Source: a virus
DNA: 64,000 nt
Virus record (IMG/VR): IMGVR_UViG_3300013132_000036
Coordinates: 20,524 to 84,523 of that record
Direction: 5' to 3' (one strand)
Part shown: one piece after another, positions 2,914 to 15,915 of the stretch
How positions within the stretch are numbered: position 1 is the first letter of the stretch
How the letters are laid out: every line of letters starts with the position of its first letter
Notes under the pieces: model-generated
Databases searched by the model: none
Told to the model about the DNA's origin: nothing
The model's input: the letters and a program-made list of their open reading frames with translations, nothing else
Made by a program: the position numbers and the translations under genes

Positions 2914-3381
2914 TTACTGATTTGATTTTGATGCTTTTTGAAAAGTTTTAAAGTCCATTAAAGAATTACTTATCGGATTTGGGGTTTCTTTAGATATCTT
3001 TTTCTTCTTTTTTTTAGCTGCTGGAGTACCTACAGTTAAGCTAGGAAATTGATCTCCGGATCCCGTTCTTCCTGGTCCAGGAGGTACAACGTTACCCATA
3101 CCAGGTGTTCCAGCCAAAGATGCCATAGCACCTCCGCTCTCTTCAAGTTCACTAGAGATTTTATCTTTAAATACTCTATACATTCCCCTTTCTCCCTCTA
3201 TAACATATCCTATTACTTCACCTACACTGTTCCTAATAGAATCATCAACCCTACCACTTCTCCCGTCTACAAGAGAAACTCTCTTACCAACTAAAGGATC
3301 CTGATCATATTTAGAAGCCCTGTGTGAATCGTAGCTTCTAATGTTATCTGTGACTCCGCCACATCCGCAATCTTCGCTCAT
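2914..3381 (-). CDS. Small-barrel protein with Gly/Pro linker and Lys-rich C-terminus
   Basis: Unrecognised 155-residue protein. After a Cys/Gly-rich start (SEDCGCGG) a compact beta segment runs from about residue 30 to 78 (LVGKRVSLVDGRSGRV to MYRVFKDKISSEL), looking like an SH3 or KOW-type small barrel. A flexible Gly/Pro stretch follows, then AAKKKKKK. The C-terminus SLMDFKTFQKASKSNQ resembles the N-terminal targeting signature of neighbours, but placed at the other end. It sits one base after the next gene's stop. Structural or head-associated roles are possible, but only from context. Confidence 0.65.
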   Translation of the reverse strand: MSEDCGCGGVTDNIRSYDSHRASKYDQDPLVGKRVSLVDGRSGRVDDSIRNSVGEVIGYVIEGERGMYRVFKDKISSELEESGGAMASLAGTPGMGNVVPPGPGRTGSGDQFPSLTVGTPAAKKKKKKISKETPNPISNSLMDFKTFQKASKSNQ

Positions 3382-3382
3382 A

Positions 3383-3727
3383 TTATTTTTTTATTTTAGT
3401 TATAAATTCTCTATAATCTGAAAGATTTTGCATCTTCCTAGCTTTAGATTTTTTCGGTGTATTCGATTCTGGACTAAGGTGCGGAATAATAGTAGCTATT
3501 CCTTCTTCAATCTCTTCTGGTAATTTTTTATGTTTTGTACTAGCATAATCCTTAAGAGCTTTCTTCTTCATATTATTAGCTATCTCCACTATAGTTTCCC
3601 TATATGCTGAATCTATTTTCCTTGGATTTAATCCCTCTTTTCCGTTCGTGTCCATCCACTTACGTACTCCGTGTGCTTGCCCCATGAGTCTCTGTTGTGT
3701 TCTTGAAACAGATTTCTCGTTTAACAT
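3383..3727 (-). CDS. DUF3008-like small phage protein
   Basis: A protein of 114 residues. SRTQQRLMGQAHGVRKW near the N-terminus and the later LKDYASTKHKKLPEEIE match the pattern of short phage proteins grouped as DUF3008 (SxxQQRLMG at the start, ASTKHKxLP at the end). The function of that family is not established. The C-terminal extension QNLSDYREFITKIKK again looks like the targeting signature found at the N-termini of nearby proteins. The start overlaps the end of the endonuclease-like gene by 7 bases. Confidence 0.65.
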   Translation of the reverse strand: MLNEKSVSRTQQRLMGQAHGVRKWMDTNGKEGLNPRKIDSAYRETIVEIANNMKKKALKDYASTKHKKLPEEIEEGIATIIPHLSPESNTPKKSKARKMQNLSDYREFITKIKK

Positions 3728-5241: not shown

Positions 5242-5553
5242 TTATTCGTTTACGCTGGAAGCTTTTAGGATTCTTTTACCTAGAGTAGTTAGAGAGAAAT
5301 AGTTTGCTTCTTCCTCTTGGACTTTATATCTGATATATTTTTTTTGTCCTCTAACCCAATTCATGGAAGGCTTCCTTCCTGAAGCATCTTCTGGTACGCT
5401 ATCTAAGAATTCCGTAAGCTCTCTTTTGGTTACTTTCTCCTTCTCTCCTATAAAGGAAAGAACTTTTATTGTTGTGGCAGATGGTTTAGCCCAAGCTATT
5501 GGAATCCTAGATTCATTTATAAATTCTTTATATGAAAGAATATTACTAATCAT
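5242..5553 (-). CDS. Targeting-signature protein with possible winged-helix domain
   Basis: A 103-residue protein that begins MISNILSYKEFINESR, a strong example of the capsid-targeting-like signature with a potential cleavage Glu at position 14. The remainder looks like one winged helix-turn-helix: TIKVLSFIGEKEKVTKREL, then a helix, a wing (KKYIRYKVQEEEANYFS) and LTTLGKRIL. The fold assignment is by eye only. If correct, it would be a DNA-binding protein delivered from the capsid. Its start overlaps the stop of the upstream gene by 8 bases, so the two are probably co-expressed. Confidence 0.65.
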   Translation of the reverse strand: MISNILSYKEFINESRIPIAWAKPSATTIKVLSFIGEKEKVTKRELTEFLDSVPEDASGRKPSMNWVRGQKKYIRYKVQEEEANYFSLTTLGKRILKASSVNE

Positions 5554-6082
5554 GATCCCTTCTAGTATAAATTAAAGTTTCCTCATCAGGTCCTTCTTGA
5601 ACGCTCCATTTTTCATAGCTCCATTCTCCCATTAATGTTTCTACTCTGTCTTTATACTCTGAAAAATCAATATTTAGATTCATAGTAATCTCATCATAGA
5701 TTTTAGAGACCTTAGGATTATTTTGTAAATAGTCTTTTATTGCTTCACTCAGGATTCGGTAAAATCTCATGAACTCTGATCTGGTAAGATTGAAATCGTC
5801 ATCCTCTCTAGATTTGTAATCAGTATCATTTACTAAATAGTCATCAAGTATTCCAATTTTAATTGGCTCCACTGATAAAACACAATAACTATTTTCTGCT
5901 TCATCTATAGAAGATCCCCTGGAAAGTTTACCTATATTAATAATAAATCCTAGATTTTCCTCCTCGCCCTCTATTTTAAAGTAGTACTTGGAAACCTTCC
6001 CGTCTTTCTTTTTAGCAAAGAAGTCTCTTCCGAAACCATCTTCTTCCATTAAAAAATTCTCAAATAATTTTATATGCTTCAT
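5546..6082 (-). CDS. Hypothetical protein with capsid-targeting-like N-terminus
   Basis: Unrecognised 178-residue protein. It opens MKHIKLFENFLMEED, with the expected aromatic spacing and Glu-Glu where a gp21-type protease could cut. The body has a beta-rich first half (SKYYFKIEGEEENLGFIINI) and helical stretches (SEFMRFYRILSEAIKDYL) ending in a charged tail. Two bases separate it from the next upstream gene. No enzymatic motif is visible. Confidence 0.65.
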   Translation of the reverse strand: MKHIKLFENFLMEEDGFGRDFFAKKKDGKVSKYYFKIEGEEENLGFIINIGKLSRGSSIDEAENSYCVLSVEPIKIGILDDYLVNDTDYKSREDDDFNLTRSEFMRFYRILSEAIKDYLQNNPKVSKIYDEITMNLNIDFSEYKDRVETLMGEWSYEKWSVQEGPDEETLIYTRRDHD

Positions 6083-6358: not shown

Positions 6359-7963
6359 CTAAAATGTTATTCCTAGTTTAGCTCCCCATTTGTCTGCTAA
6401 AGGACCAAGACAAGAGTACATTGCAGGGTCTGTTTGTAATTCTGGGTGTAAATTAAAGAATGTTGCAAGAGCTGCTGATCCTTCCTCTTCAAGATCTGTT
6501 CTCTCTAACCATTTAGCATAGTTACAAACTTCAGTAGGGGTCAGTTTAATTTCTTTACTTTTTCTAATAACTGCTCCAAATAAAGCGTGAGTGTAATCCG
6601 GTTTATTTCCTTTGTCTGCAGGGATTGGTGCTTTTGCCGGATCAGTATATGGTAAAATAAGTTCTCTAACCGGAATGTCCTTAGCAACCTTATAAAAATT
6701 TAAGAAAGATACAGCAGCATCATTACCTACGTTTTTAGAAAATTCCTTCTTTATAACATCCTCTGGGATATTAGTAATTCCTTTTGCTTCTAAATTTCTA
6801 ATTACTCTTGATAAAGAGTTAGAGGCATCAACCCAAGCCCTAGGGGTAGGGTATTTAGTTTTCTTAGTGGCAGGATCTAAATTATGGAAGAAGTCAGGCT
6901 GGAATTCTAAGAAATCTAAAAGTTCGGGTAAAACAACATTTTTATATCTGCTTCTTTCCACATAAGATCTAAATCCTTTTATGGTAGGCACGAAGTTAAC
7001 TGCTTGAAATCTGTCTCTAAGTGCAGTTCCTAATTCTTTAACAGATTTATCATCCTGCTTTCTGTTACCTGCTGCTACAATATACCATCTTTCTGGAATA
7101 TTATAATTGTTTCCAATTCTTCTTGATTGTGCAAGTTTCATAAATATTTTAATAACCTCCTCTGGCATACGATTTAACTCATCAATAAATATTATTCCAC
7201 CTTTACCATTCCTACCATTATCATAAGGAAGAATATCTATGTTGATATTTGATCTTGTTACTCCCGCACCTGCGTAATTTCTCTCTGGATCTGGCTCTTT
7301 CATAGTTACTACACTAGGTACACCAGCAAAATCAACAGGTTCAGCATTTTCTCCATCTACATTGACTAAAGAAAGCTTATGCCCATATAATTCTTTTCCT
7401 AATTCGTCACAAACCTGTGCTACTATCTGTGTTTTACCAATCCCAGGAGCTCCGTAAATAAAAATAGGCTTAACATCTAGAATTCCCCTGTACATGTCAT
7501 CTAATTCGTCTTCAGTTGCCCCGGCTTTCTTAGCAGCATCCATTTCATCAGCAATTCTGAAGATCTCTCTCATGTTTGTTTTGATGTCCTCCTTTATTTC
7601 CGGTTCGGAGTAATTAGGTACGTCGTCTGAAATAGGATATTCAAGGGGAACTGCATCTTCCCATAAAAAACTTTCACCAAGGGTCTCTGGTTTTTCAAGA
7701 TTACCCATGTTATAGTATTCTGTTCCTTTATAGAAATTATTAACCTGACTTAAAATAGATTCACTCTTAGAATCGTCAAATAAAGCAACCCTCGGGGTTC
7801 CTGTTTTAGGGCCAGAAGATATCAATTTAACTAAACCCGACTTAACCGCATTGTATAGGCCTTTTGCCCATGAAGATATTTTCGATCCTAAATTGGATAA
7901 AAATCCCTCACTCATATATGATTCATTTACGAATTCATCGAAATTATAAATTCTTTTAGCCAT
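6359..7963 (-). CDS. MoxR-family AAA+ ATPase with capsid-targeting-like N-terminus
   Basis: A 534-residue AAA+ ATPase. The core shows Walker A GAPGIGKT (171-178), Walker B IIFIDE (257-262), sensor-1 asparagine in VAAGN (N300) and an arginine-finger segment ALRDRF (314-319). This is the layout of MoxR and CobS-like ATPases that act with VWA partners to remodel or load metal onto target proteins. The N-terminus MAKRIYNFDEFVNESYM carries the targeting signature. An amphipathic stretch (about 20-50) and a non-conserved linker precede the ATPase. It is directly followed by two small genes and preceded by the VWA and metallopeptidase genes, the usual MoxR neighbourhood. A GATATATA element lies 22 bases upstream. 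The substrate is unknown. Confidence 0.85.
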   Translation of the reverse strand: MAKRIYNFDEFVNESYMSEGFLSNLGSKISSWAKGLYNAVKSGLVKLISSGPKTGTPRVALFDDSKSESILSQVNNFYKGTEYYNMGNLEKPETLGESFLWEDAVPLEYPISDDVPNYSEPEIKEDIKTNMREIFRIADEMDAAKKAGATEDELDDMYRGILDVKPIFIYGAPGIGKTQIVAQVCDELGKELYGHKLSLVNVDGENAEPVDFAGVPSVVTMKEPDPERNYAGAGVTRSNINIDILPYDNGRNGKGGIIFIDELNRMPEEVIKIFMKLAQSRRIGNNYNIPERWYIVAAGNRKQDDKSVKELGTALRDRFQAVNFVPTIKGFRSYVERSRYKNVVLPELLDFLEFQPDFFHNLDPATKKTKYPTPRAWVDASNSLSRVIRNLEAKGITNIPEDVIKKEFSKNVGNDAAVSFLNFYKVAKDIPVRELILPYTDPAKAPIPADKGNKPDYTHALFGAVIRKSKEIKLTPTEVCNYAKWLERTDLEEEGSAALATFFNLHPELQTDPAMYSCLGPLADKWGAKLGITF

Positions 7964-7984
7964 TTTTATTCTATTATTTACCTT

Positions 7985-7993
7985 GTATATATC
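7985..7993 (-). promoter_or_regulatory. Candidate late-promoter element GATATATAC
   Basis: Minus-strand GATATATAC in the 34-base gap before the MoxR gene, 22 bases from its ATG. Close variants sit 14-20 bases upstream of four other genes. T4-like phages use TATAAATA as the late -10 box, so this may be the equivalent. No -35 signal is evident. Inferred from recurrence only. Confidence 0.4.
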
Positions 7994-7997
7994 TTTT

Positions 7998-9005
7998 TTA
8001 TATTCTTTTTACGTTCTTGTTGGCAAGAACAATGTCTATTCTTTCACCAAAAGGTTGGGAGTTAGGATAAGGCTCATCATTGAAGGTTAGGAATACCCAA
8101 ATACATCGGTCACCATATTCAGAAATGTCATAGTCATTTTCAGAAGGAAAACCTGCCTCACCGTCAGTAAAGTATATAAAAACTGTGGGTGTTTCACCTT
8201 CCTGATCTATCATGTTTTTTTGAACCCATTTGAATGGGGGCCAAAAATAAGTTCCTCCTCCTCCCGCTATTTTATTATAATCCGGAAGATCTCCTGGCTC
8301 TAATATATCTGGTTCATAAACTTGTGTGTCACAATACAATATAACTGTTTTATTTGGGTTATACTCTTGAGTTATATTCGTAACTTCTCCTAGAAATTGT
8401 TCTATCATTTCTCTTGTAATAGATCCAGAGGTATCTATTGCAACAACTACACTCTGAAAATCTTCCTTATATCTCTTATAGCCATATTGAGCTTTTCCTG
8501 ATCCCAGAAATCTTCTAGAGGGTAATGTATATTTGGATTTAGATATAGCTTGATCTATATACTTTGAAAGTTCTTCTTTCCAATCTATAACAGGTCTTTT
8601 AGTTTTTTGAATTGCTCTCTTTAGCTGAGCCGGGATATTTCCTGCATTAGTACCTGCAATTCTAGTTATATCTTCCCATTCTTCGGCTAATGTTTCACCA
8701 TTAAGTCCGCTGTCTCCTCCGAGATCCCCAAGTTCCCCAGGTCTAAGAATTTCCCCTGGATTATACCCATCCTTGACTTTAGGTCCTCCTCCTCCTGTTT
8801 CGGTCCTTTTAAATTCAGATTCTTCTTCCTTTATTTTACCATCTTTGTCCCTCTCCGGAACTTCCCTATCTGGAACGTCATCTCCCCACTCATCTATATT
8901 TTCTGGCTTAGGTATAGGAAAATCGGGGGGAAAATCTCCGGTTCCGCCTCCGCCGCCTCCTTCTCTAATTTCTTGTATTCTTACGCCTGTTATTTTTGCT
9001 TTCAT
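7998..9005 (-). CDS. VWA-domain protein (MoxR partner)
   Basis: A 335-residue protein with a C-terminal von Willebrand factor A domain (about 184-330). The MIDAS metal site is intact: DTSGS at 191-195, a threonine in GGGGTYF (T252) and the later Asp in YFTDG (D281). The N-terminal half is disordered: a run of six glycines (16-21), proline/acidic stretches, another GGGG, then a helical linker. Such VWA proteins commonly pair with MoxR ATPases. In DUF2201 proteins of bacteria the VWA domain is fused to a metallopeptidase domain, here a separate adjacent gene. No capsid-targeting signature is present, unlike its two flanking genes. Confidence 0.85.
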   Translation of the reverse strand: MKAKITGVRIQEIREGGGGGGTGDFPPDFPIPKPENIDEWGDDVPDREVPERDKDGKIKEEESEFKRTETGGGGPKVKDGYNPGEILRPGELGDLGGDSGLNGETLAEEWEDITRIAGTNAGNIPAQLKRAIQKTKRPVIDWKEELSKYIDQAISKSKYTLPSRRFLGSGKAQYGYKRYKEDFQSVVVAIDTSGSITREMIEQFLGEVTNITQEYNPNKTVILYCDTQVYEPDILEPGDLPDYNKIAGGGGTYFWPPFKWVQKNMIDQEGETPTVFIYFTDGEAGFPSENDYDISEYGDRCIWVFLTFNDEPYPNSQPFGERIDIVLANKNVKRI

Positions 9006-9039
9006 ATATTAAATCCTTTTTTTCATAGAACGTATTAAA

Positions 9040-9900
9040 TTAGAAGTCTAATTCTTTTTCTATATCATCTCCTAATATATTTTCACCCTTAGCTTTTCTC
9101 TGTAGATATTCTTTAACCTTATTTTTCGGTATAGGATCATACTCAAGCTCACCTGATGTCTCGTCTATAGACTTAACTATACCATAAGAATCATTATCTT
9201 TATCGTATATAATGTCACCAACTACAGGATCCTTTGGCGGTGGTGGAGGTGGTGGAGGTGTGGTCGGAGGATATCCTTCCTCAGGAACATATCCATTAGA
9301 AAGAAGCTTCTCATATATCCATTCTGCACTCCTGTTTACGAATTCATAATCATAAGGAACATGGCCACATCCAGGATATAATGATCCCTCTACCATTTTT
9401 CCTATCCCTCCTTTAGAAACAGGTTTAGGCTTATCGGAATTTATCGTGCTTGTATCTACGGGTGTTAACAACTGATTAAGTGCATAATCTGCTGCAACGT
9501 TCCATACACCTGCTTTAGTTTTATCCTTAGGACATCTTAAAAAGTGTACCAATGTATTGTGTAAAACCTCATGTGCAATAACCCATATTATCTCCTCATC
9601 TGTACGACCTAGAACAAAATCTGGATCATAGTGTATACTAACACCATCAGTTGCCATTGTTTTATATTCAAGATTTCTGTTTTCTCTGATAATCAATCGA
9701 GATAACATCGATGCAAAAAATGGATATGATCCGTTTAGTAAAAATACACACGCCCTCATTTTTTTCAGAGCTGCGGGATTGTGTGGTGTTTTGTTTCTTT
9801 CGTCTAAATAGATTGCTTCATTTAAACTGTTATACTCTGAATAACCAAATCTAGCATATTCAAAAATTGCAAAATCACTGAAGGATAATATTCTTTTCAT
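9040..9900 (-). CDS. DUF2201-type putative zinc metallopeptidase, signature-tagged
   Basis: A 286-residue predicted metallopeptidase. The zincin motif HEVLH is at 110-114, followed by WNVAADYALN (133-142), a combination typical of the DUF2201 N-terminal peptidase domain. A proline-rich hinge (eight consecutive prolines) leads to a small barrel-like C-terminal segment (VGDIIYDKDNDSYGIVKSI). The start MKRILSFSDFAIFEY bears the capsid-targeting-like signature. It lies immediately upstream of the VWA and MoxR genes, together forming a split version of the bacterial MoxR plus peptidase-VWA pair. Proteolytic activity is not demonstrated for the family in general, so a metal-dependent role other than cleavage is possible. 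Confidence 0.8.
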   Translation of the reverse strand: MKRILSFSDFAIFEYARFGYSEYNSLNEAIYLDERNKTPHNPAALKKMRACVFLLNGSYPFFASMLSRLIIRENRNLEYKTMATDGVSIHYDPDFVLGRTDEEIIWVIAHEVLHNTLVHFLRCPKDKTKAGVWNVAADYALNQLLTPVDTSTINSDKPKPVSKGGIGKMVEGSLYPGCGHVPYDYEFVNRSAEWIYEKLLSNGYVPEEGYPPTTPPPPPPPPKDPVVGDIIYDKDNDSYGIVKSIDETSGELEYDPIPKNKVKEYLQRKAKGENILGDDIEKELDF

Positions 9901-9917: not shown

Positions 9918-11927
9918 CTATATATCCTCTTCAGAACCGTTTATTTGTTTGGTAAATTCATTGAAAAGAACTGCTACTGATTTAGGAACTTTACTTTTAA
10001 ATTGTTGAAAATCTCCGTCTTTTATGTAAGTCCTAATATCATTATTATTTGACCATTGAGGAGTTTTATATATTTCTATATCTCCTCCCTCTAAGTCGTA
10101 TTTATTTCTTACCCATTCTCTCTGTAGAATCATGTTTTCAAAATCTCTTTCCCCTATACATACTGACGCAGGGTTAGCATATTTAACAACTGCATTTAGA
10201 GCGTCTTCTAAAAGATTGGACGGTATTATCTGATACCCTGCAAAAAGCTTATTATTCTCCGATGTTAGAGATCCTATTGATTTTCTTATTAAATCTTCAG
10301 AGAATGGATATTTTGATCCAGGCTCACTTCCTGGATGAACCACACAAAGGAAAACAGGTAAATTATTTTCCTTCTTTAATCTGGTACACATTTTTAAATG
10401 CCCATTATTAAAAGGCTGGAATTTCCCGATTACTATATTTACTTTCTGGTTGTTCTCGTTTAATATCTTAATCTTTCTTTTCTCTTTATGTGTAGTTACT
10501 ACTTTTTTAAAATCTTTAAATGAAAAAAATTCGGATGCGTCTTCGCTTTTTTTCTCCTCCTCAGTTATAACCGTAGGCGTTTCTGATTCATTAAGAGAAA
10601 CAGGATCTTCAGAAGAAGATCCCTCTATTATTTCTTCCAGCTCATCTATTTCATCTTCTTCTTCGCTCATTGTTGGATTAAATTTGCTACCTGCTTTTTT
10701 AAACCAAACAAAGCTAGGAACTCCTAAAGATTCCTCTACTAAATCTTTTTTCTTAGCGTTTATATAGCCAGCGATTTCTTCAACTAGCATGTTAAACTGT
10801 TGTATTAGACCTTCTGTGAAAAATCCATGTGGTTTTCTTTTAAGCTTCCTGAAGGAATTAAGAATCATCTGGAGAATGTCTATATAAACTTCATCATCTT
10901 CTATAGACTTTAACACCTCTTCATCGATTATTAAATCCTTGTTTATTTCAAATCCCTCTGATTTTAAATATTCAGGTTTTTGAAAATCAGCGCCTACGTA
11001 TTTTTCTCCCTCCTCATATACAAATCTCTTAAATACATTAAAAACAAAACTGATGTATCTTTCTTCCGGATCGTTTCCTTCAGCTGTGAAATTTTCTACA
11101 CCAGTCTCTAATATGAAATTCATTACATCTATAAGACATAAAGAATAAACATCGCTAGGGAAGTATGAAGTCTGGGTAACTTTTCTACTTTTGTTTATCT
11201 CATGGAAAACTGGATCAACCATTTTTGCTAAAACTGTTTCCTCCTTACCATCTTCATCTTCGAATCTGAAAACAAGAGAATCTATTTCCCCCTGTAGATC
11301 CTTACCAAGGGTTGTTCTTTCTACGTTTTTGTTTAATATAGAAATTAAATAGTTACTAAAGCTAGCAGTTTTAAATTTACTTTTAAGATCCATTAAAGGA
11401 GTTGAAAGGAAATCCATTATCGCTATCTTCTGATCCCTATTAAGTTTACCTTGGAATATAATAGGGGATCTCTCTACTTCTAGCTTATCTGCCCACTCGT
11501 CTAGCTCGTTCTTATCCTGTAAATTTTTAATAACGTCGCCGAATTCATCTCTAACAACAACGTGTGTTAAAACAAGATGATTTTTTGGTACCCTGTCGTA
11601 TTCGATCCTAACAGGTTTTTTATTGGGAAAGTAAACCATTCCAAATCTCCACCCTTTAGGAAGCTGATCAGTGATTTCAAGTGACAATGATTCTATATAA
11701 ATTATAGGCTTTTCGTAATATTTCATTAATATCCTATCAACCTTAGTTATAGGGTTATCTTGATCTTTTTTATAAAAAGATATATTATCTCCAGTAAAAT
11801 CCCTCTCGAAAGAAAAAGAAGGTCCATCTAAATTCTCAGTTACTGTTAAATTTTTATTGAAAAGGCTTTCAATGAAGGACTTTCCTTTTTTCTCGTATAT
11901 GTCCGTTAAGTATTTTATTCCAGCCAT
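9918..11927 (-). CDS. Ligase-like domain fused to NMN adenylyltransferase-like domain
   Basis: A 669-residue two-part protein. The N-terminus resembles the nucleotidyltransferase core of RNA/DNA ligases (LTVTENLDGPSFSF, residues 27-40). The lysine expected in the KxDG nucleotide-binding motif is asparagine (N32), so adenylation is doubtful. A long helical region and an acidic linker (about 425-470) follow. From about 496 there is an adenylyltransferase fold: IVIGKFQPFNNGH (the GxFxPFxxGH nucleotide motif), VCIGERDFEN and NNNDIRTYI. This resembles NadM/NMNAT-type enzymes of NAD synthesis. An internal FFSFKDFKKV resembles the targeting signature. ATG at 11927 overlaps the preceding stop (TAATG) and is preferred over an earlier TTG. 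Confidence 0.7.
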   Translation of the reverse strand: MAGIKYLTDIYEKKGKSFIESLFNKNLTVTENLDGPSFSFERDFTGDNISFYKKDQDNPITKVDRILMKYYEKPIIYIESLSLEITDQLPKGWRFGMVYFPNKKPVRIEYDRVPKNHLVLTHVVVRDEFGDVIKNLQDKNELDEWADKLEVERSPIIFQGKLNRDQKIAIMDFLSTPLMDLKSKFKTASFSNYLISILNKNVERTTLGKDLQGEIDSLVFRFEDEDGKEETVLAKMVDPVFHEINKSRKVTQTSYFPSDVYSLCLIDVMNFILETGVENFTAEGNDPEERYISFVFNVFKRFVYEEGEKYVGADFQKPEYLKSEGFEINKDLIIDEEVLKSIEDDEVYIDILQMILNSFRKLKRKPHGFFTEGLIQQFNMLVEEIAGYINAKKKDLVEESLGVPSFVWFKKAGSKFNPTMSEEEDEIDELEEIIEGSSSEDPVSLNESETPTVITEEEKKSEDASEFFSFKDFKKVVTTHKEKRKIKILNENNQKVNIVIGKFQPFNNGHLKMCTRLKKENNLPVFLCVVHPGSEPGSKYPFSEDLIRKSIGSLTSENNKLFAGYQIIPSNLLEDALNAVVKYANPASVCIGERDFENMILQREWVRNKYDLEGGDIEIYKTPQWSNNNDIRTYIKDGDFQQFKSKVPKSVAVLFNEFTKQINGSEEDI

Positions 11928-12370
11928 TAGTTTAAACAATTAATAATTTTTCTACCTTTTAAATTACAAATTAAAAGATGTCCTATCCTTAAATTTTTCT
12001 TAGGTACAAAATCAGAACTTATTATATATTCCTCTAAAAATTTCATGATGCTGACTACTAAAATCCTAGATCTATAGCTTACTTCCGGATTATTATTTAA
12101 GTCATTTAATATGTCTATATAGTCTTCTAAGGAGCTTTTTTTATCCGGCTTAATCAATGCCTTAAAAATATCCTTTTCAATCGTGTATACAAGCTCTTTT
12201 TCTATAGTAATGCTCCAATTTCCTGTGACGTCTTCTGTTAATATTCCCCTTTCTCCTAAAAACGTCATAAATGAAAAATCGTCGCCATCTGGAGAGACCG
12301 AATGAATCTTACATCCCGTATAGTGCTGTAAAACTGGATAAAGTGCGGTACTTTGTATATGGCTAAGCAT
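11927..12370 (-). CDS. Hypothetical protein
   Basis: Unrecognised 147-residue protein starting MLSHIQSTALYPVLQHY. It contains a small mixed alpha/beta region (SFMTFLGERGILTEDVTG, WSITIEKELVYTIEKD) and a C-terminal helical part. There is no targeting signature, transmembrane segment or catalytic motif. Its stop overlaps the start of the ligase-like/NMNAT gene by one base (TAATG), so the two are translationally coupled. It starts 6 bases after the acidic-tail gene. A partner or chaperone for one of these is plausible but unproven. Confidence 0.6.
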   Translation of the reverse strand: MLSHIQSTALYPVLQHYTGCKIHSVSPDGDDFSFMTFLGERGILTEDVTGNWSITIEKELVYTIEKDIFKALIKPDKKSSLEDYIDILNDLNNNPEVSYRSRILVVSIMKFLEEYIISSDFVPKKNLRIGHLLICNLKGRKIINCLN

Positions 12371-13903: not shown

Positions 13904-15445
13904 CTAAATTTTGACGTTATATATTTTGTAATCGAAATGCTCCCTCTTATAAATCTCTATTCTTTCCTTGGAGTGCTTAAGCAAATAATTCTCTTTTCCT
14001 TCCCAAGCAAAATCATCTACAAAATCTATTATATTAACTTTCTCCTTCCCTTCGAACAATCTCATACCCCTTCCCAAACTCTGTTTTATAAGTACCTCAG
14101 ATTTATAGGACTCGGTTAAGAATATATTGTGGATGTTTTTTACGGAGATCCCAGTAGACATTGTTCCGAAAGAAGCTACCATTATTTTATTAACTCCCTC
14201 CTCCATTCTTTTGGTGAATATATCTCTCTTGTCAGGCTCTGTATCTCCATCTATATAGTACGCTTCCCTATCGTTGCTTCTTTCCCTTATTCCATCATAT
14301 ATTTTCTTACCGTATCCTTCTCCAACAGATTGGAAAAGTATTAATGAGTTCTTTGATGTTTTGAGAACAAAATCTATTATATAGTTAAGCCTTTTCTCTG
14401 AACCGACAACAAGTTTTCTTTCCAGATTAAAGATCTCATTACCTTCCATTTCAGTTTTGTTCTCTTTAAGGGAGGATAATTTTTCTTTTATCTCGTCATC
14501 CATCCAATCCATTTTTACTATCTTAATAGAGACGGGGGTAGCATATTTGTTATCAAATAAAAACTTGGGTGATATCTCCATTATTAAAGGTCCGAGAAAT
14601 TGCTGTATGGTTAGATATTCAGCAGTGTTTTTGTTTGCTAATGTTCCAGACAATCCAAATCTCCATTTAGAATCCTTACAAACTGCTACAACTTTTTTTA
14701 TAGAAGCACTTTGAGCTTGGTGACACTCGTCAACAAAAACAGCTTCGATGTCGTTAAAAAATTCAGGATCCATTTTCACCAATGATTGATATGTTCCTAT
14801 CATTAGTCCGCCTGATATTTTTTTCTTATTCGCACCGTGTATTTGTTGAATCTCGCAATCTTCTAATTTCTCTAATCCATATTCTTCGAAATCTTCAGCA
14901 CCTTGTATAACAAGGTTTGTATTGGGAACTATCATAAGGAATTTCTTAACCTTCATTACTTCCTTAAGATATGACATAACCATAAAAGCAATAAGAGTTT
15001 TTCCTGAGCTTGTAGCAACCTCAGAAACAGAGAGTTTAAATTTTATAATCTTCCATGCTGTTTCTATCTGGTAGTCTCTTGGCATCTTGTTAGGATCACC
15101 ACCTACGCCATCTTTAAAAAATTCATTGATCCATTCGGTATAAGATTCAAGAGTGAAAGATTGATCTATTAATCTTTCTAATCCCTCTATTTTTACTTCG
15201 ATCTTATATTTTTCACAGATCTGATATACCTCAGACCATAGACCTATAGGTATTCGCCAAACGGGTAATTTTTTATCAACAAAACAGATTGAACCATCCC
15301 AGTGTTTTTTCTTAACGAGCGGATGGAAAAAGTGGTTGTGTATCTTTTTAGTTAAAGAAATATCAATTTGTTTTCTTTCAAATTCCTCATTATAATCTAC
15401 TAAGCTTAACCAGTTATTATCTTCACTTACCCTAAATATTAACAT
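13904..15445 (-). CDS. uvsW: UvsW-like DNA/RNA helicase
   Basis: Superfamily 2 helicase of the T4 UvsW type, which unwinds D-loops, R-loops and branched DNA during recombination-dependent replication. Motifs are complete: Q-type RDYQ, Walker A ATSSGKT (144-150), DECH (239-242), SGT (motif III), VASFGTMSTGISVKN (motif V) and QSLGRGMR (motif VI). The N-terminus carries the family's small domain (HNHFFHPLVKKKHWDG), aligning with the T4 segment before the helicase core. Length is 513 residues, close to T4 UvsW. The ATG at 15445 leaves a 2-base gap after the UvsY-like stop; a TTG two codons upstream is less likely. Confidence 0.92.
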   Translation of the reverse strand: MLIFRVSEDNNWLSLVDYNEEFERKQIDISLTKKIHNHFFHPLVKKKHWDGSICFVDKKLPVWRIPIGLWSEVYQICEKYKIEVKIEGLERLIDQSFTLESYTEWINEFFKDGVGGDPNKMPRDYQIETAWKIIKFKLSVSEVATSSGKTLIAFMVMSYLKEVMKVKKFLMIVPNTNLVIQGAEDFEEYGLEKLEDCEIQQIHGANKKKISGGLMIGTYQSLVKMDPEFFNDIEAVFVDECHQAQSASIKKVVAVCKDSKWRFGLSGTLANKNTAEYLTIQQFLGPLIMEISPKFLFDNKYATPVSIKIVKMDWMDDEIKEKLSSLKENKTEMEGNEIFNLERKLVVGSEKRLNYIIDFVLKTSKNSLILFQSVGEGYGKKIYDGIRERSNDREAYYIDGDTEPDKRDIFTKRMEEGVNKIMVASFGTMSTGISVKNIHNIFLTESYKSEVLIKQSLGRGMRLFEGKEKVNIIDFVDDFAWEGKENYLLKHSKERIEIYKREHFDYKIYNVKI

Positions 15446-15447
15446 TA

Positions 15448-15915
15448 TCAATAATTATTTCTAACAGCACCAGATCTTAAATACTCCTCCAGTGCTATTC
15501 TGCTTTTCACCCCGTATAACATGTGATCCACAGTTTTCATAGTTTCATTAAAGAAATAAATCTGGCCATCAACTAGGTCCATCCTTTCTTTTAATTCAGA
15601 TAGATCTCCCTCTATTAAAGGGGTCTTTTCATTTGCTCCATATTTAACTTGAACAGATTCCGAATAATATCTAAGTCTTTCAGCTTTATCTTTTCTATAC
15701 TTAGCATTAAGCTTTACCATAACCTGTCCTAGCTTTGAATACATTTCCAATAGAACCTGCCTACTAGAATATAGATCAACTTGAACCTCAGCTAACTCTT
15801 TTATATTTTTCATCCGAATAGAGAGAGTCCTTATTTTCTCCGTCCATTCTTCCCTTTCCAACTGGAAATCTCTAGCGAAATCCTTCTTATCTACATTAGG
15901 CTGTTGCTCTGACAT
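15448..15915 (-). CDS. uvsY: UvsY-like recombination mediator
   Basis: A 155-residue helical protein next to UvsW, as uvsY is in T4. UvsY loads the UvsX recombinase onto gp32-coated single-stranded DNA. Family-like features: an N-terminal helix, RLRYYSE (matching the LDYYSG/LRYYSG element of UvsY), then LIEGDLSEL and a long helical C-terminal half ending YGVKSRIALEEYLRSGA, comparable to the IKxRxFxIKxxxxMxxFExG end of UvsY. Overall similarity is weak and the call leans on position. No UvsX gene is in the window. Confidence 0.6.
   Translation of the reverse strand: MSEQQPNVDKKDFARDFQLEREEWTEKIRTLSIRMKNIKELAEVQVDLYSSRQVLLEMYSKLGQVMVKLNAKYRKDKAERLRYYSESVQVKYGANEKTPLIEGDLSELKERMDLVDGQIYFFNETMKTVDHMLYGVKSRIALEEYLRSGAVRNNY

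What the first reader, a model, noticed from the sequence alone, without database searches (positions are those of the whole stretch)
6359..9900. A split MoxR-VWA-metallopeptidase system that may travel in the capsid
Three adjacent genes encode a MoxR AAA+ ATPase (GAPGIGKT, IIFIDE), a VWA protein with an intact MIDAS (DTSGS) and a DUF2201-type HEVLH metallopeptidase. In bacteria MoxR ATPases pair with peptidase-VWA proteins; here that protein is split in two. The ATPase and peptidase carry the capsid-targeting-like start, while the VWA protein does not. Inference: a protein-remodelling machine injected at the start of infection, with the VWA adaptor supplied separately or bound to the others. 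This is the strongest candidate for an undescribed system in the window. A CobS-like annotation of the ATPase is an alternative.
Basis: partly seen in the sequence, partly recalled or inferred. Interest (0 to 1): 0.85.

Follow-up and report, generated by a model that had tools for sequence, protein, structure and literature searches.

The report
Phage chaperone-protease with capsid-entry tags
This bacterial virus carries two copies of a known three-part protein-remodelling and protein-cutting machine, and in each copy two of the three parts start with the kind of address tag that phage T4 uses to load proteins into its head, so the virus may bring a molecular machine with it when it infects.

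Summary
Three adjacent minus-strand genes encode a MoxR-type AAA+ ATPase, a VWA protein with an intact MIDAS, and a DUF2201-type HEVLH peptidase. Catalytic residues are conserved and the genes are under purifying selection.

The family is not undescribed. Iyer et al. 2021 reported the MoxR/peptidase-VWA pair in jumbo phages. It matches PHROGs 1297 and 1314; 1314 is misannotated as 'HNH endonuclease'. A split was already known in halovirus HHTV-2. The CobS/CobT alternative is not supported.

The new part is the leader. A profile trained on this phage group's other leader-bearing proteins, never on the trio, ranks T4 IPII and IPIII among the top three of 265 T4 ORFs. It finds leaders on 25/28 split-type ATPases and 15/28 peptidases, on 0/29 VWA proteins, and on 1/47 and 1/52 proteins of fused loci. 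T4-type L/I-x-E cleavage sites follow the same pattern, and relatives encode the gp21-type protease. Outside the window the same record has a second ATPase and peptidase with leaders; relatives carry the full second trio.

Best reading: ATPase and peptidase are packaged in the head (likely), then ejected to remodel and cut a target with VWA as non-packaged adaptor (inferred). A prohead-assembly role remains the main rival.

The parts
6359..7963 (-). MoxR-type AAA+ ATPase (PHROG 1297), 534 aa
   Evidence: AAA_5 E 1.9e-10; phrog_1297 E 1.8e-51; invariant Walker A/B, N300, R318 in 11 relatives
7907..7963 (-). Leader of the ATPase, residues 1-19 (MAKRIYNFDEFVNE|S....SE|G): capsid-targeting-like, with candidate prohead-protease sites after residues 14 and 19
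   Evidence: Profile trained on non-trio leaders finds it in 25/28 split-type ATPases; E19-G20 invariant in 11 sequences; pN/pS 0.09-0.13
7430..7453 (-). Walker A GAPGIGKT, residues 171-178
7178..7195 (-). Walker B IIFIDE, residues 257-262
7998..9005 (-). VWA adaptor protein without leader; also carries the C-terminal piece of DUF2201_N
   Evidence: DUF2201 E 2.1e-18, DUF2201_N 115-168; leader in 0/29 split-type VWAs
8421..8435 (-). MIDAS DTSGS, residues 191-195
   Evidence: Conserved positions in A3; motif in 31/31 VWAs of loci without a fused protein
9040..9900 (-). DUF2201_N zincin metallopeptidase with a small Tudor/SH3-like C-terminal domain
   Evidence: DUF2201_N E 3.3e-16; AlphaFold2 model pLDDT 81; Foldseek neighbours selecase, thermolysin, SPRTN
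9817..9900 (-). Leader of the peptidase, residues 1-28 (MKRILSFSDFAIFE...LNE|A), predicted disordered, candidate cut after E28
   Evidence: N27-E28 nearly invariant; residues 1-22 and 24-27 have pLDDT below 50
9559..9573 (-). HEVLH zinc-binding motif, residues 110-114
   Evidence: H110, E111, H114 invariant in 24 sequences
5546..6082 (-). Neighbouring unknown gene with leader (MKHIKLFENFLMEE)
   Evidence: a similar neighbour flanks the leaderless, fused locus L092
5242..5553 (-). Neighbouring unknown gene with leader (MISNILSYKEFINES)
9918..11939 (-). Flanking cytidylyltransferase-like gene that marks the syntenic slot; not part of the machine

Best explanation
This is a MoxR AAA+/VWA/zincin-peptidase remodelling machine whose ATPase and peptidase subunits carry T4-type capsid-targeting leaders. 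Step 1 (strongly supported by sequence, not shown physically): the leaders carry ATPase and peptidase into the prohead core, and a gp21-type prohead protease trims them after L/I-x-E. Step 2 (inferred from T4 internal proteins): the trimmed proteins stay with the DNA and are ejected into the next host. Step 3 (inferred from NorQ/NorD and other MoxR/VWA pairs): the VWA protein has no leader and is made in the infected cell, or rides along bound to its partners. It plugs the ATPase ring and holds a target through its MIDAS, so that ATP-driven remodelling exposes the target to the peptidase. The target is unknown; a host or defence complex is my preferred guess. The phage group carries two such machines in parallel.
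For: (a) Leader profile trained only on non-trio proteins: 25/28 split ATPases, 15/28 peptidases, 0/29 VWAs, against 1/47 and 1/52 in fused loci. (b) Positive control: the same profile ranks gp61.1, IPIII and IPII first to third among 265 T4 ORFs. (c) [LIV]xE in residues 1-30: ATPase 24/28, peptidase 25/28, VWA 1/29, fused types 4/48 and 7/52; T4 gp21 cuts after L/I-X-E and the T4 leader is about 10 residues (PMC9026906). (d) gp21-type Peptidase_S77 in 7 of 14 related contigs. (e) The peptidase model is disordered up to the LNE|A site and folded after it. (f) The paralogous second trio shows the same pattern. (g) In the same syntenic slot of contig G014 (L092) the machine is fused and both genes lack leaders, although a flanking leader-like gene and the protease are present. 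(h) In L010 and L097, where peptidase and VWA are fused, the fused protein starts with a leader or leader-like sequence. (i) Leaders of this kind have served to find T-even internal proteins, which are injected (PMC12373910).
Against: I found no virion proteomics, expression or phenotype data for this group. The record is a fragment in which no gp21-type protease or T4-type portal was found, so the protease is seen only in relatives. T4 IPI and Alt score poorly with the profile (1.6 and -5.5), so the motif is neither necessary nor proven sufficient for packaging. 13/28 peptidases fall below the threshold, several because a W replaces F or Y. A hexameric AAA+ machine would need ATP and all three partners after ejection, yet VWA lacks a leader. 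Leaders also occur on metabolic proteins such as adenylate kinase.
Confidence: 0.55

Rival explanations
1. Virion-assembly chaperone and protease, as Iyer et al. proposed for jumbo phages: the leaders bring ATPase and peptidase to the prohead core, where they help core disassembly, maturation or loading of other leader-bearing cargo, and do nothing in the next host.
For: Published proposal for this family, with the ATV tail-assembly precedent (PMC7824862). A leader targets the prohead, so a role there is the shorter inference. Ordinary fused versions work without leaders, so the core function is probably exercised in the infected cell. Early-type promoter motifs found in relatives do not precede trio genes.
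Against: The VWA subunit, needed for target choice in known MoxR/VWA pairs, lacks the leader in every split locus. Relatives at the same locus do without leaders, so prohead entry is not required for the basic role.
Confidence: 0.27
2. The N-terminal motif is not a capsid-entry tag here but a docking motif for another phage machine or site, and the trio acts only inside the infected cell.
For: Leaders are found on diverse proteins including adenylate kinase and correlate with unusual C-terminal tails, so they could serve another sorting step. No experiment exists on this clade.
Against: The profile independently recovers T4 IPII and IPIII; cleavage-type L/I-x-E sites accompany the leaders; relatives encode the cognate type of protease.
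Confidence: 0.13
3. A CobS/CobT-like cobaltochelatase module that boosts cobalamin synthesis through the host CobN.
For: Liu et al. call the wider phage module cobST (PMC8651126). The ATPase has a weak phrog_249 ('porphyrin biosynthesis') match, E 4e-7.
Against: No TIGR01650 CobS match to either ATPase; the only match in seven records is a separate gene in G003, far below cut-off. No NCBIfam CobS or CobT match to the trio. No CobN in seven records. The partner carries an intact zincin active site, which is not a CobT feature (my knowledge). phrog_1297 fits far better (E 1.8e-51).
Confidence: 0.03

Closest known systems
MoxR / metallopeptidase-vWA pair of group 2.2 jumbo phages (ASV44729.1 / ASV44728.2; Iyer et al. 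2021, PMC7824862; PHROG 1297 + 1314)
   Same: Same kind of ATPase, peptidase and VWA domains, adjacent genes
   Different: Here peptidase and VWA are separate genes, ATPase and peptidase carry capsid-targeting-like leaders, and two paralogous copies exist
Halovirus HHTV-2 'cobT' split into two ORFs (Liu et al. 2021, PMC8651126)
   Same: vWA domain on its own ORF, in an AAA+/vWA module
   Different: No leader is mentioned in the passages I read and it was interpreted as cobaltochelatase; I did not compare the sequences directly
T4 internal proteins IPII/IPIII with capsid targeting sequence
   Same: N-terminal leader of the same pattern (MKTYQEFIAE) and L/I-x-E processing motif; T4 IPs are injected
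   Different: T4 IPs are small inhibitors; here the cargo is an ATPase and a peptidase of a multi-subunit machine; packaging is not shown
NorQ/NorD, CbbQ/CbbO, RavA/ViaA MoxR-VWA chaperones
   Same: MoxR ring with VWA/MIDAS partner
   Different: Those partners have other N-terminal domains and, to my knowledge, no zincin peptidase; they are cellular
AAA family ATPase UFVDC4_00011 next to metallopeptidase UFVDC4_00012, Staphylococcus phage vB_SauM-UFV_DC4 (PMC10638138)
   Same: AAA+/metallopeptidase neighbours; its named relative PBS1 has the pair by my HMMs; the ATPase was detected in virions by LC-MS
   Different: Only one peptide, and the authors say such co-packaged proteins need confirmation; no leader of this type in the PBS1 homologue

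Membership tests
Phage MoxR / peptidase-VWA module (PHROG 1297 + 1314) | MoxR-type AAA+ ATPase of PHROG 1297 | tested here: met
   E 1.8e-51; second ATPase E 3.1e-52
Phage MoxR / peptidase-VWA module (PHROG 1297 + 1314) | Zincin peptidase with HExxH | tested here: met
   DUF2201_N E 3.3e-16; invariant HExxH; zincin neighbours by fold
Phage MoxR / peptidase-VWA module (PHROG 1297 + 1314) | VWA domain with MIDAS | tested here: met
   DUF2201 E 2.1e-18; 31/31 intact
Phage MoxR / peptidase-VWA module (PHROG 1297 + 1314) | Peptidase and VWA fused in one protein | tested here: not met
   Separate genes in the window and 28 distinct split loci; fused in cyanophage-like loci, LR756500, L092 and L097. 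Hence 'variant'
T4-type capsid-targeted internal proteins | N-terminal capsid-targeting leader | tested here: met
   Independent profile, (sequence criterion only)
T4-type capsid-targeted internal proteins | gp21-type cleavage site L/I-x-E in the leader | tested here: met
   24/28 ATPases and 25/28 peptidases against 1/29 VWAs, with [LIV]xE
T4-type capsid-targeted internal proteins | Phage encodes a gp21-type prohead protease | tested here: inconclusive
   Found in 7/14 related contigs; not found in this 84.5 kb fragment
T4-type capsid-targeted internal proteins | Protein present and processed in the mature virion, injected | not testable with these tools
   Needs mass spectrometry of virions
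Cobaltochelatase CobS/CobT | CobS family match (TIGR01650) | tested here: not met
   No match in G000 or on any trio ATPase; the control search rings over the cut-off in one of 14 control genomes
Cobaltochelatase CobS/CobT | CobN catalytic subunit in the phage | tested here: not met
   PF02514 absent in seven records; a host CobN is not excluded
Anti-phage defence systems (PADLOC) | Match to a known defence protein | tested here: not met
   Only weak P-loop matches to the ATPases, none to VWA or peptidase
MoxR/VWA chaperones (NorQD type) | VWA finger entering the ATPase pore | not tested
   Described for NorQ/NorD (PMC9976466); no complex was modelled here

The most novel reading that the evidence does not exclude
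A virus packages the motor and the protease of an AAA+ proteolytic machine in its capsid, twice over, and leaves the target-choosing VWA adaptor to be made in the new host, so that one injected engine can be pointed at different targets by exchangeable adaptors. One relative has two tandem VWA genes for a single ATPase and peptidase.
Probability: 0.35. Interest if true: 0.82.

Novelty: new variant of a known kind. Interest (0 to 1): 0.6.

Why it matters
The role of the widespread phage MoxR/peptidase-VWA module is unknown: hundreds of phage records encode it, often annotated 'HNH endonuclease' or 'ATPase'. The leaders place part of it in the virion and give a concrete test. If confirmed, it would be, to my knowledge, the first injected AAA+ remodelling protease. 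It would also show that the T4 capsid-targeting code reaches well beyond T-even anti-restriction proteins. The natural pair of leaderless fused and leader-bearing split versions in one syntenic slot makes the question directly testable.

Tried and rejected
1) CobST cobaltochelatase: tested and not supported. 2) Sequencing or frameshift artefact behind the split: rejected, since the split is conserved in many contigs and in both paralogues. 3) Idea that the leader-bearing gene L003:13915-14397 is an Alt-like ADP-ribosyltransferase, which would have paralleled T4: no Pfam or PHROG hit, and its model (pLDDT 69) has no fold match; dropped. 4) T4 late-promoter motif TATAAATA upstream of trio genes: not enriched enough to use. 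5) A clean one-step split: rejected, because the ATPase tree has fused L091/L092 nested inside split lineages and L125/L126 split elsewhere. Leaders mark the 41-member clade (support 0.998), not the split as such. 6) The NCBIfam and PDB sequence searches gave only generic AAA+/P-loop matches for the ATPase and nothing convincing for VWA.
Full report
WHAT IS THERE. The window is positions 20524-84523 of an 84.5 kb viral record that is probably a fragment. It belongs to a tailed phage with T4-like parts: baseplate wedge, baseplate hub/lysozyme-like protein, ssDNA-binding protein, DNA helicase, DNA polymerase and PhoH. The three genes are at the stated coordinates. Pfam confirms AAA_5, DUF2201 (VWA-like) and DUF2201_N. 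PHROGs assign the ATPase to phrog_1297. Both the peptidase (profile 13-151) and the VWA protein (175-390) fall in one family, phrog_1314, so two genes here correspond to one protein elsewhere.

IT IS A KNOWN FAMILY. Iyer et al. 2021 described a MoxR AAA+ ATPase and a vWA co-chaperone with an N-terminal metallopeptidase domain in jumbo phages, and proposed a virion-assembly role (PMC7824862). Liu et al. 2021 called the wider module cobST and noted that HHTV-2 has the vWA on its own ORF (PMC8651126). Against 50,697 phage records the ATPase matches 733, VWA 361 and peptidase 46. The title claim of an undescribed system therefore does not stand.

THE SPLIT. Close relatives in IMG/VR keep the split at 65-86% identity. 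Over 144 loci I found 28 distinct split-type ATPases and about 50 distinct fused proteins. Two tight gene orders exist: peptidase-VWA-ATPase and ATPase-peptidase-VWA. The contig behind L007 has two tandem VWA genes, 59% and 80% identical to the window's, for one ATPase and peptidase. The split is not one clean event: the ATPase tree has a 41-member clade (support 0.998) that holds all split loci but also some fused ones, among them L091/L092, L097 and LR756500.

A SECOND COPY. The first 2.4 kb of the same record, outside the window, encode a second MoxR ATPase (938-2437) and a second HEILH peptidase (3-941) that runs off the contig end. Full second trios, also split, are present in relatives, including the contig that holds L007 (L011). 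The two ATPases are 35% identical, so the paralogy is old. PF13203 matches show peptidases of both systems in this record and in G003 and G005.

THE LEADER. The ATPase begins MAKRIYNFDEFVNES and the peptidase MKRILSFSDFAIFEY. In a census of 1,054 ORFs from five related records the motif starts at residues 5-10 in 50 ORFs, against about 4 per 5-residue bin further in. To avoid circularity I built a 10-position profile from 43 leaders of proteins outside the trio and set the threshold at the 99th percentile of internal windows. It scores positive in 25/28 split ATPases, 15/28 split peptidases and 0/29 split VWAs, and in 1/47 ATPases and 1/52 peptidase-VWAs of fused loci. As a positive control, the same profile was run on 265 ORFs of phage T4. 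The top three are gp61.1, IPIII and IPII; the last two are established capsid-targeted internal proteins with MKTYQEFIAE. IPI and Alt score low, so the profile is specific but not complete.

PROCESSING SITES. T4 gp21 cuts after L/I-X-E, and the first ten residues of IPIII suffice for capsid entry (PMC9026906). [LIV]xE occurs in residues 1-30 of 24/28 split ATPases and 25/28 split peptidases but 1/29 VWAs, and in 4/48 and 7/52 fused-type proteins. E19-G20 of the ATPase is invariant and N27-E28 of the peptidase nearly so. The AlphaFold2 model of the window peptidase (pLDDT 81) is disordered over residues 1-22 and 24-27 and ordered after the LNE28 site, as expected for a propeptide. A gp21-type Peptidase_S77 is encoded by 7 of 14 related contigs. 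It was not found in this fragment. Leader codons are under purifying selection.

A NATURAL COMPARISON. In L092 (contig G014) the same slot, between the cytidylyltransferase-like gene and a gene resembling window 5546-6082, holds a fused peptidase-VWA and an ATPase, both without leader, although that contig encodes the prohead protease and the flanking gene has a leader-like start (the synteny call rests on my reading of the N-termini). The basic function therefore needs no leader, and the leaders look like an added delivery feature. Where a leader-type phage has the fused protein (LR756500, L097) the fused protein starts with a leader or leader-like sequence. Only in split loci is the VWA left without one.

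ENZYMES. In loci without a fused protein HExxH is kept in 28/30 peptidases, the MIDAS in 31/31 VWAs and Walker A in 38/38 ATPases. Fold neighbours of the peptidase are selecase, thermolysin and SPRTN-type proteases; E-values are weak (best 0.018) but consistently zincin. Its C-terminal domain resembles Tudor/SH3 folds.

MECHANISM. Shown by sequence: families, split, leader, cleavage-type sites, second copy, conservation. Inferred: packaging (about 0.8 in my judgement), trimming, ejection, and action in the next cell (about 0.55 in all). In NorQ/NorD the VWA domain plugs the MoxR ring with a finger and uses its MIDAS on the target, which the authors suggest is general for MoxR/VWA pairs (PMC9976466). 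By analogy the VWA here would choose the target, the ring would remodel it, and the zincin, encoded next to the VWA, would cut it. The lack of a leader on VWA means either that the adaptor is made after infection, keeping the packaged engine inactive until then, or that it rides along by binding. The main rival is action inside the prohead during assembly. Weak outside support for virion presence of the family: LC-MS of Staphylococcus phage UFV_DC4 found one peptide of an AAA ATPase encoded next to a metallopeptidase, and the authors ask for confirmation of such co-packaged proteins (PMC10638138). The PBS1 relative has the pair by my HMMs.

COBALTOCHELATASE. No CobS (TIGR01650) match to the trio ATPases, no CobS or CobT hit in NCBIfam, and no CobN in seven records. 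The only CobS-like ATPase found is a different gene in G003.

VERDICT. Observation confirmed; interpretation partly supported; new variant of a known kind. The surprising and testable part is the leader, not the trio.

Noticed in passing
L011:11486-12343, L053:7566-11304, L011:12852-13868 and other genes in G003/G007/G008: Two C-terminal tails recur on leader-bearing proteins with unrelated bodies: [KR]Gxx[MLI]LxxFG near the C-terminus of 17 proteins (once mid-protein in 1,054 ORFs), and [DNSE]Lxx[LI]GF at the very end of 12 proteins, 12/12 with a leader-like start (20% expected; loose test). Possibly a second sorting or processing signal.
   Followed up: partly
L003:15693-16352: An adenylate kinase (Pfam ADK, E 7e-32) has an N-terminal leader extension (MESKKNNPKKVSNFKEFVKEFGD), suggesting a metabolic enzyme in the capsid.
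   Followed up: no
window 2914-3381 and 3383-3727: Leader-like motifs sit at the C-terminus instead (SLMDFKTFQKASKSNQ; LSDYREFITKIKK), conserved in relatives.
   Followed up: no
G003 85-118 kb and G007 106-132 kb (relatives): About 33 promoter-like sites (TTTTTT...TAGAATTTTCTACATT(TG)...TAACCAAT) precede mostly small genes; the -7 part resembles the Bacteroidota TAnnTTTG element (my knowledge), hinting at host phylum and an early gene class; none precedes the trio.
   Followed up: partly
T4 gp61.1 (NC_000866 18966-19130): The leader profile ranks T4 gp61.1 (MKTFKEFIKED) above IPII and IPIII; a candidate further T4 internal protein.
   Followed up: no
G003:92292-93314: A separate CobS-like AAA+ gene (TIGR01650, 30 bits, far below cut-off) is present in the relative G003 in addition to the two MoxR systems.
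   Followed up: no
PHROG 1314: The family holding peptidase-VWA proteins is labelled 'HNH endonuclease', and annotated phage records carry that or 'homing endonuclease'; it looks like a widespread misannotation.
   Followed up: yes
L005:1296-4084: The helicase gene (window 13904-15451 homologue) is interrupted by an inserted ORF of 289 aa in this relative; probably an intein or homing element.
   Followed up: no
L106-L111 (IMG/VR contigs up to 411 kb): Very large versions of the ATPase (656-786 aa) and partner (751-879 aa) carry leader-like N-termini with NEG/LNE sites, suggesting the feature extends to huge phages.
   Followed up: no
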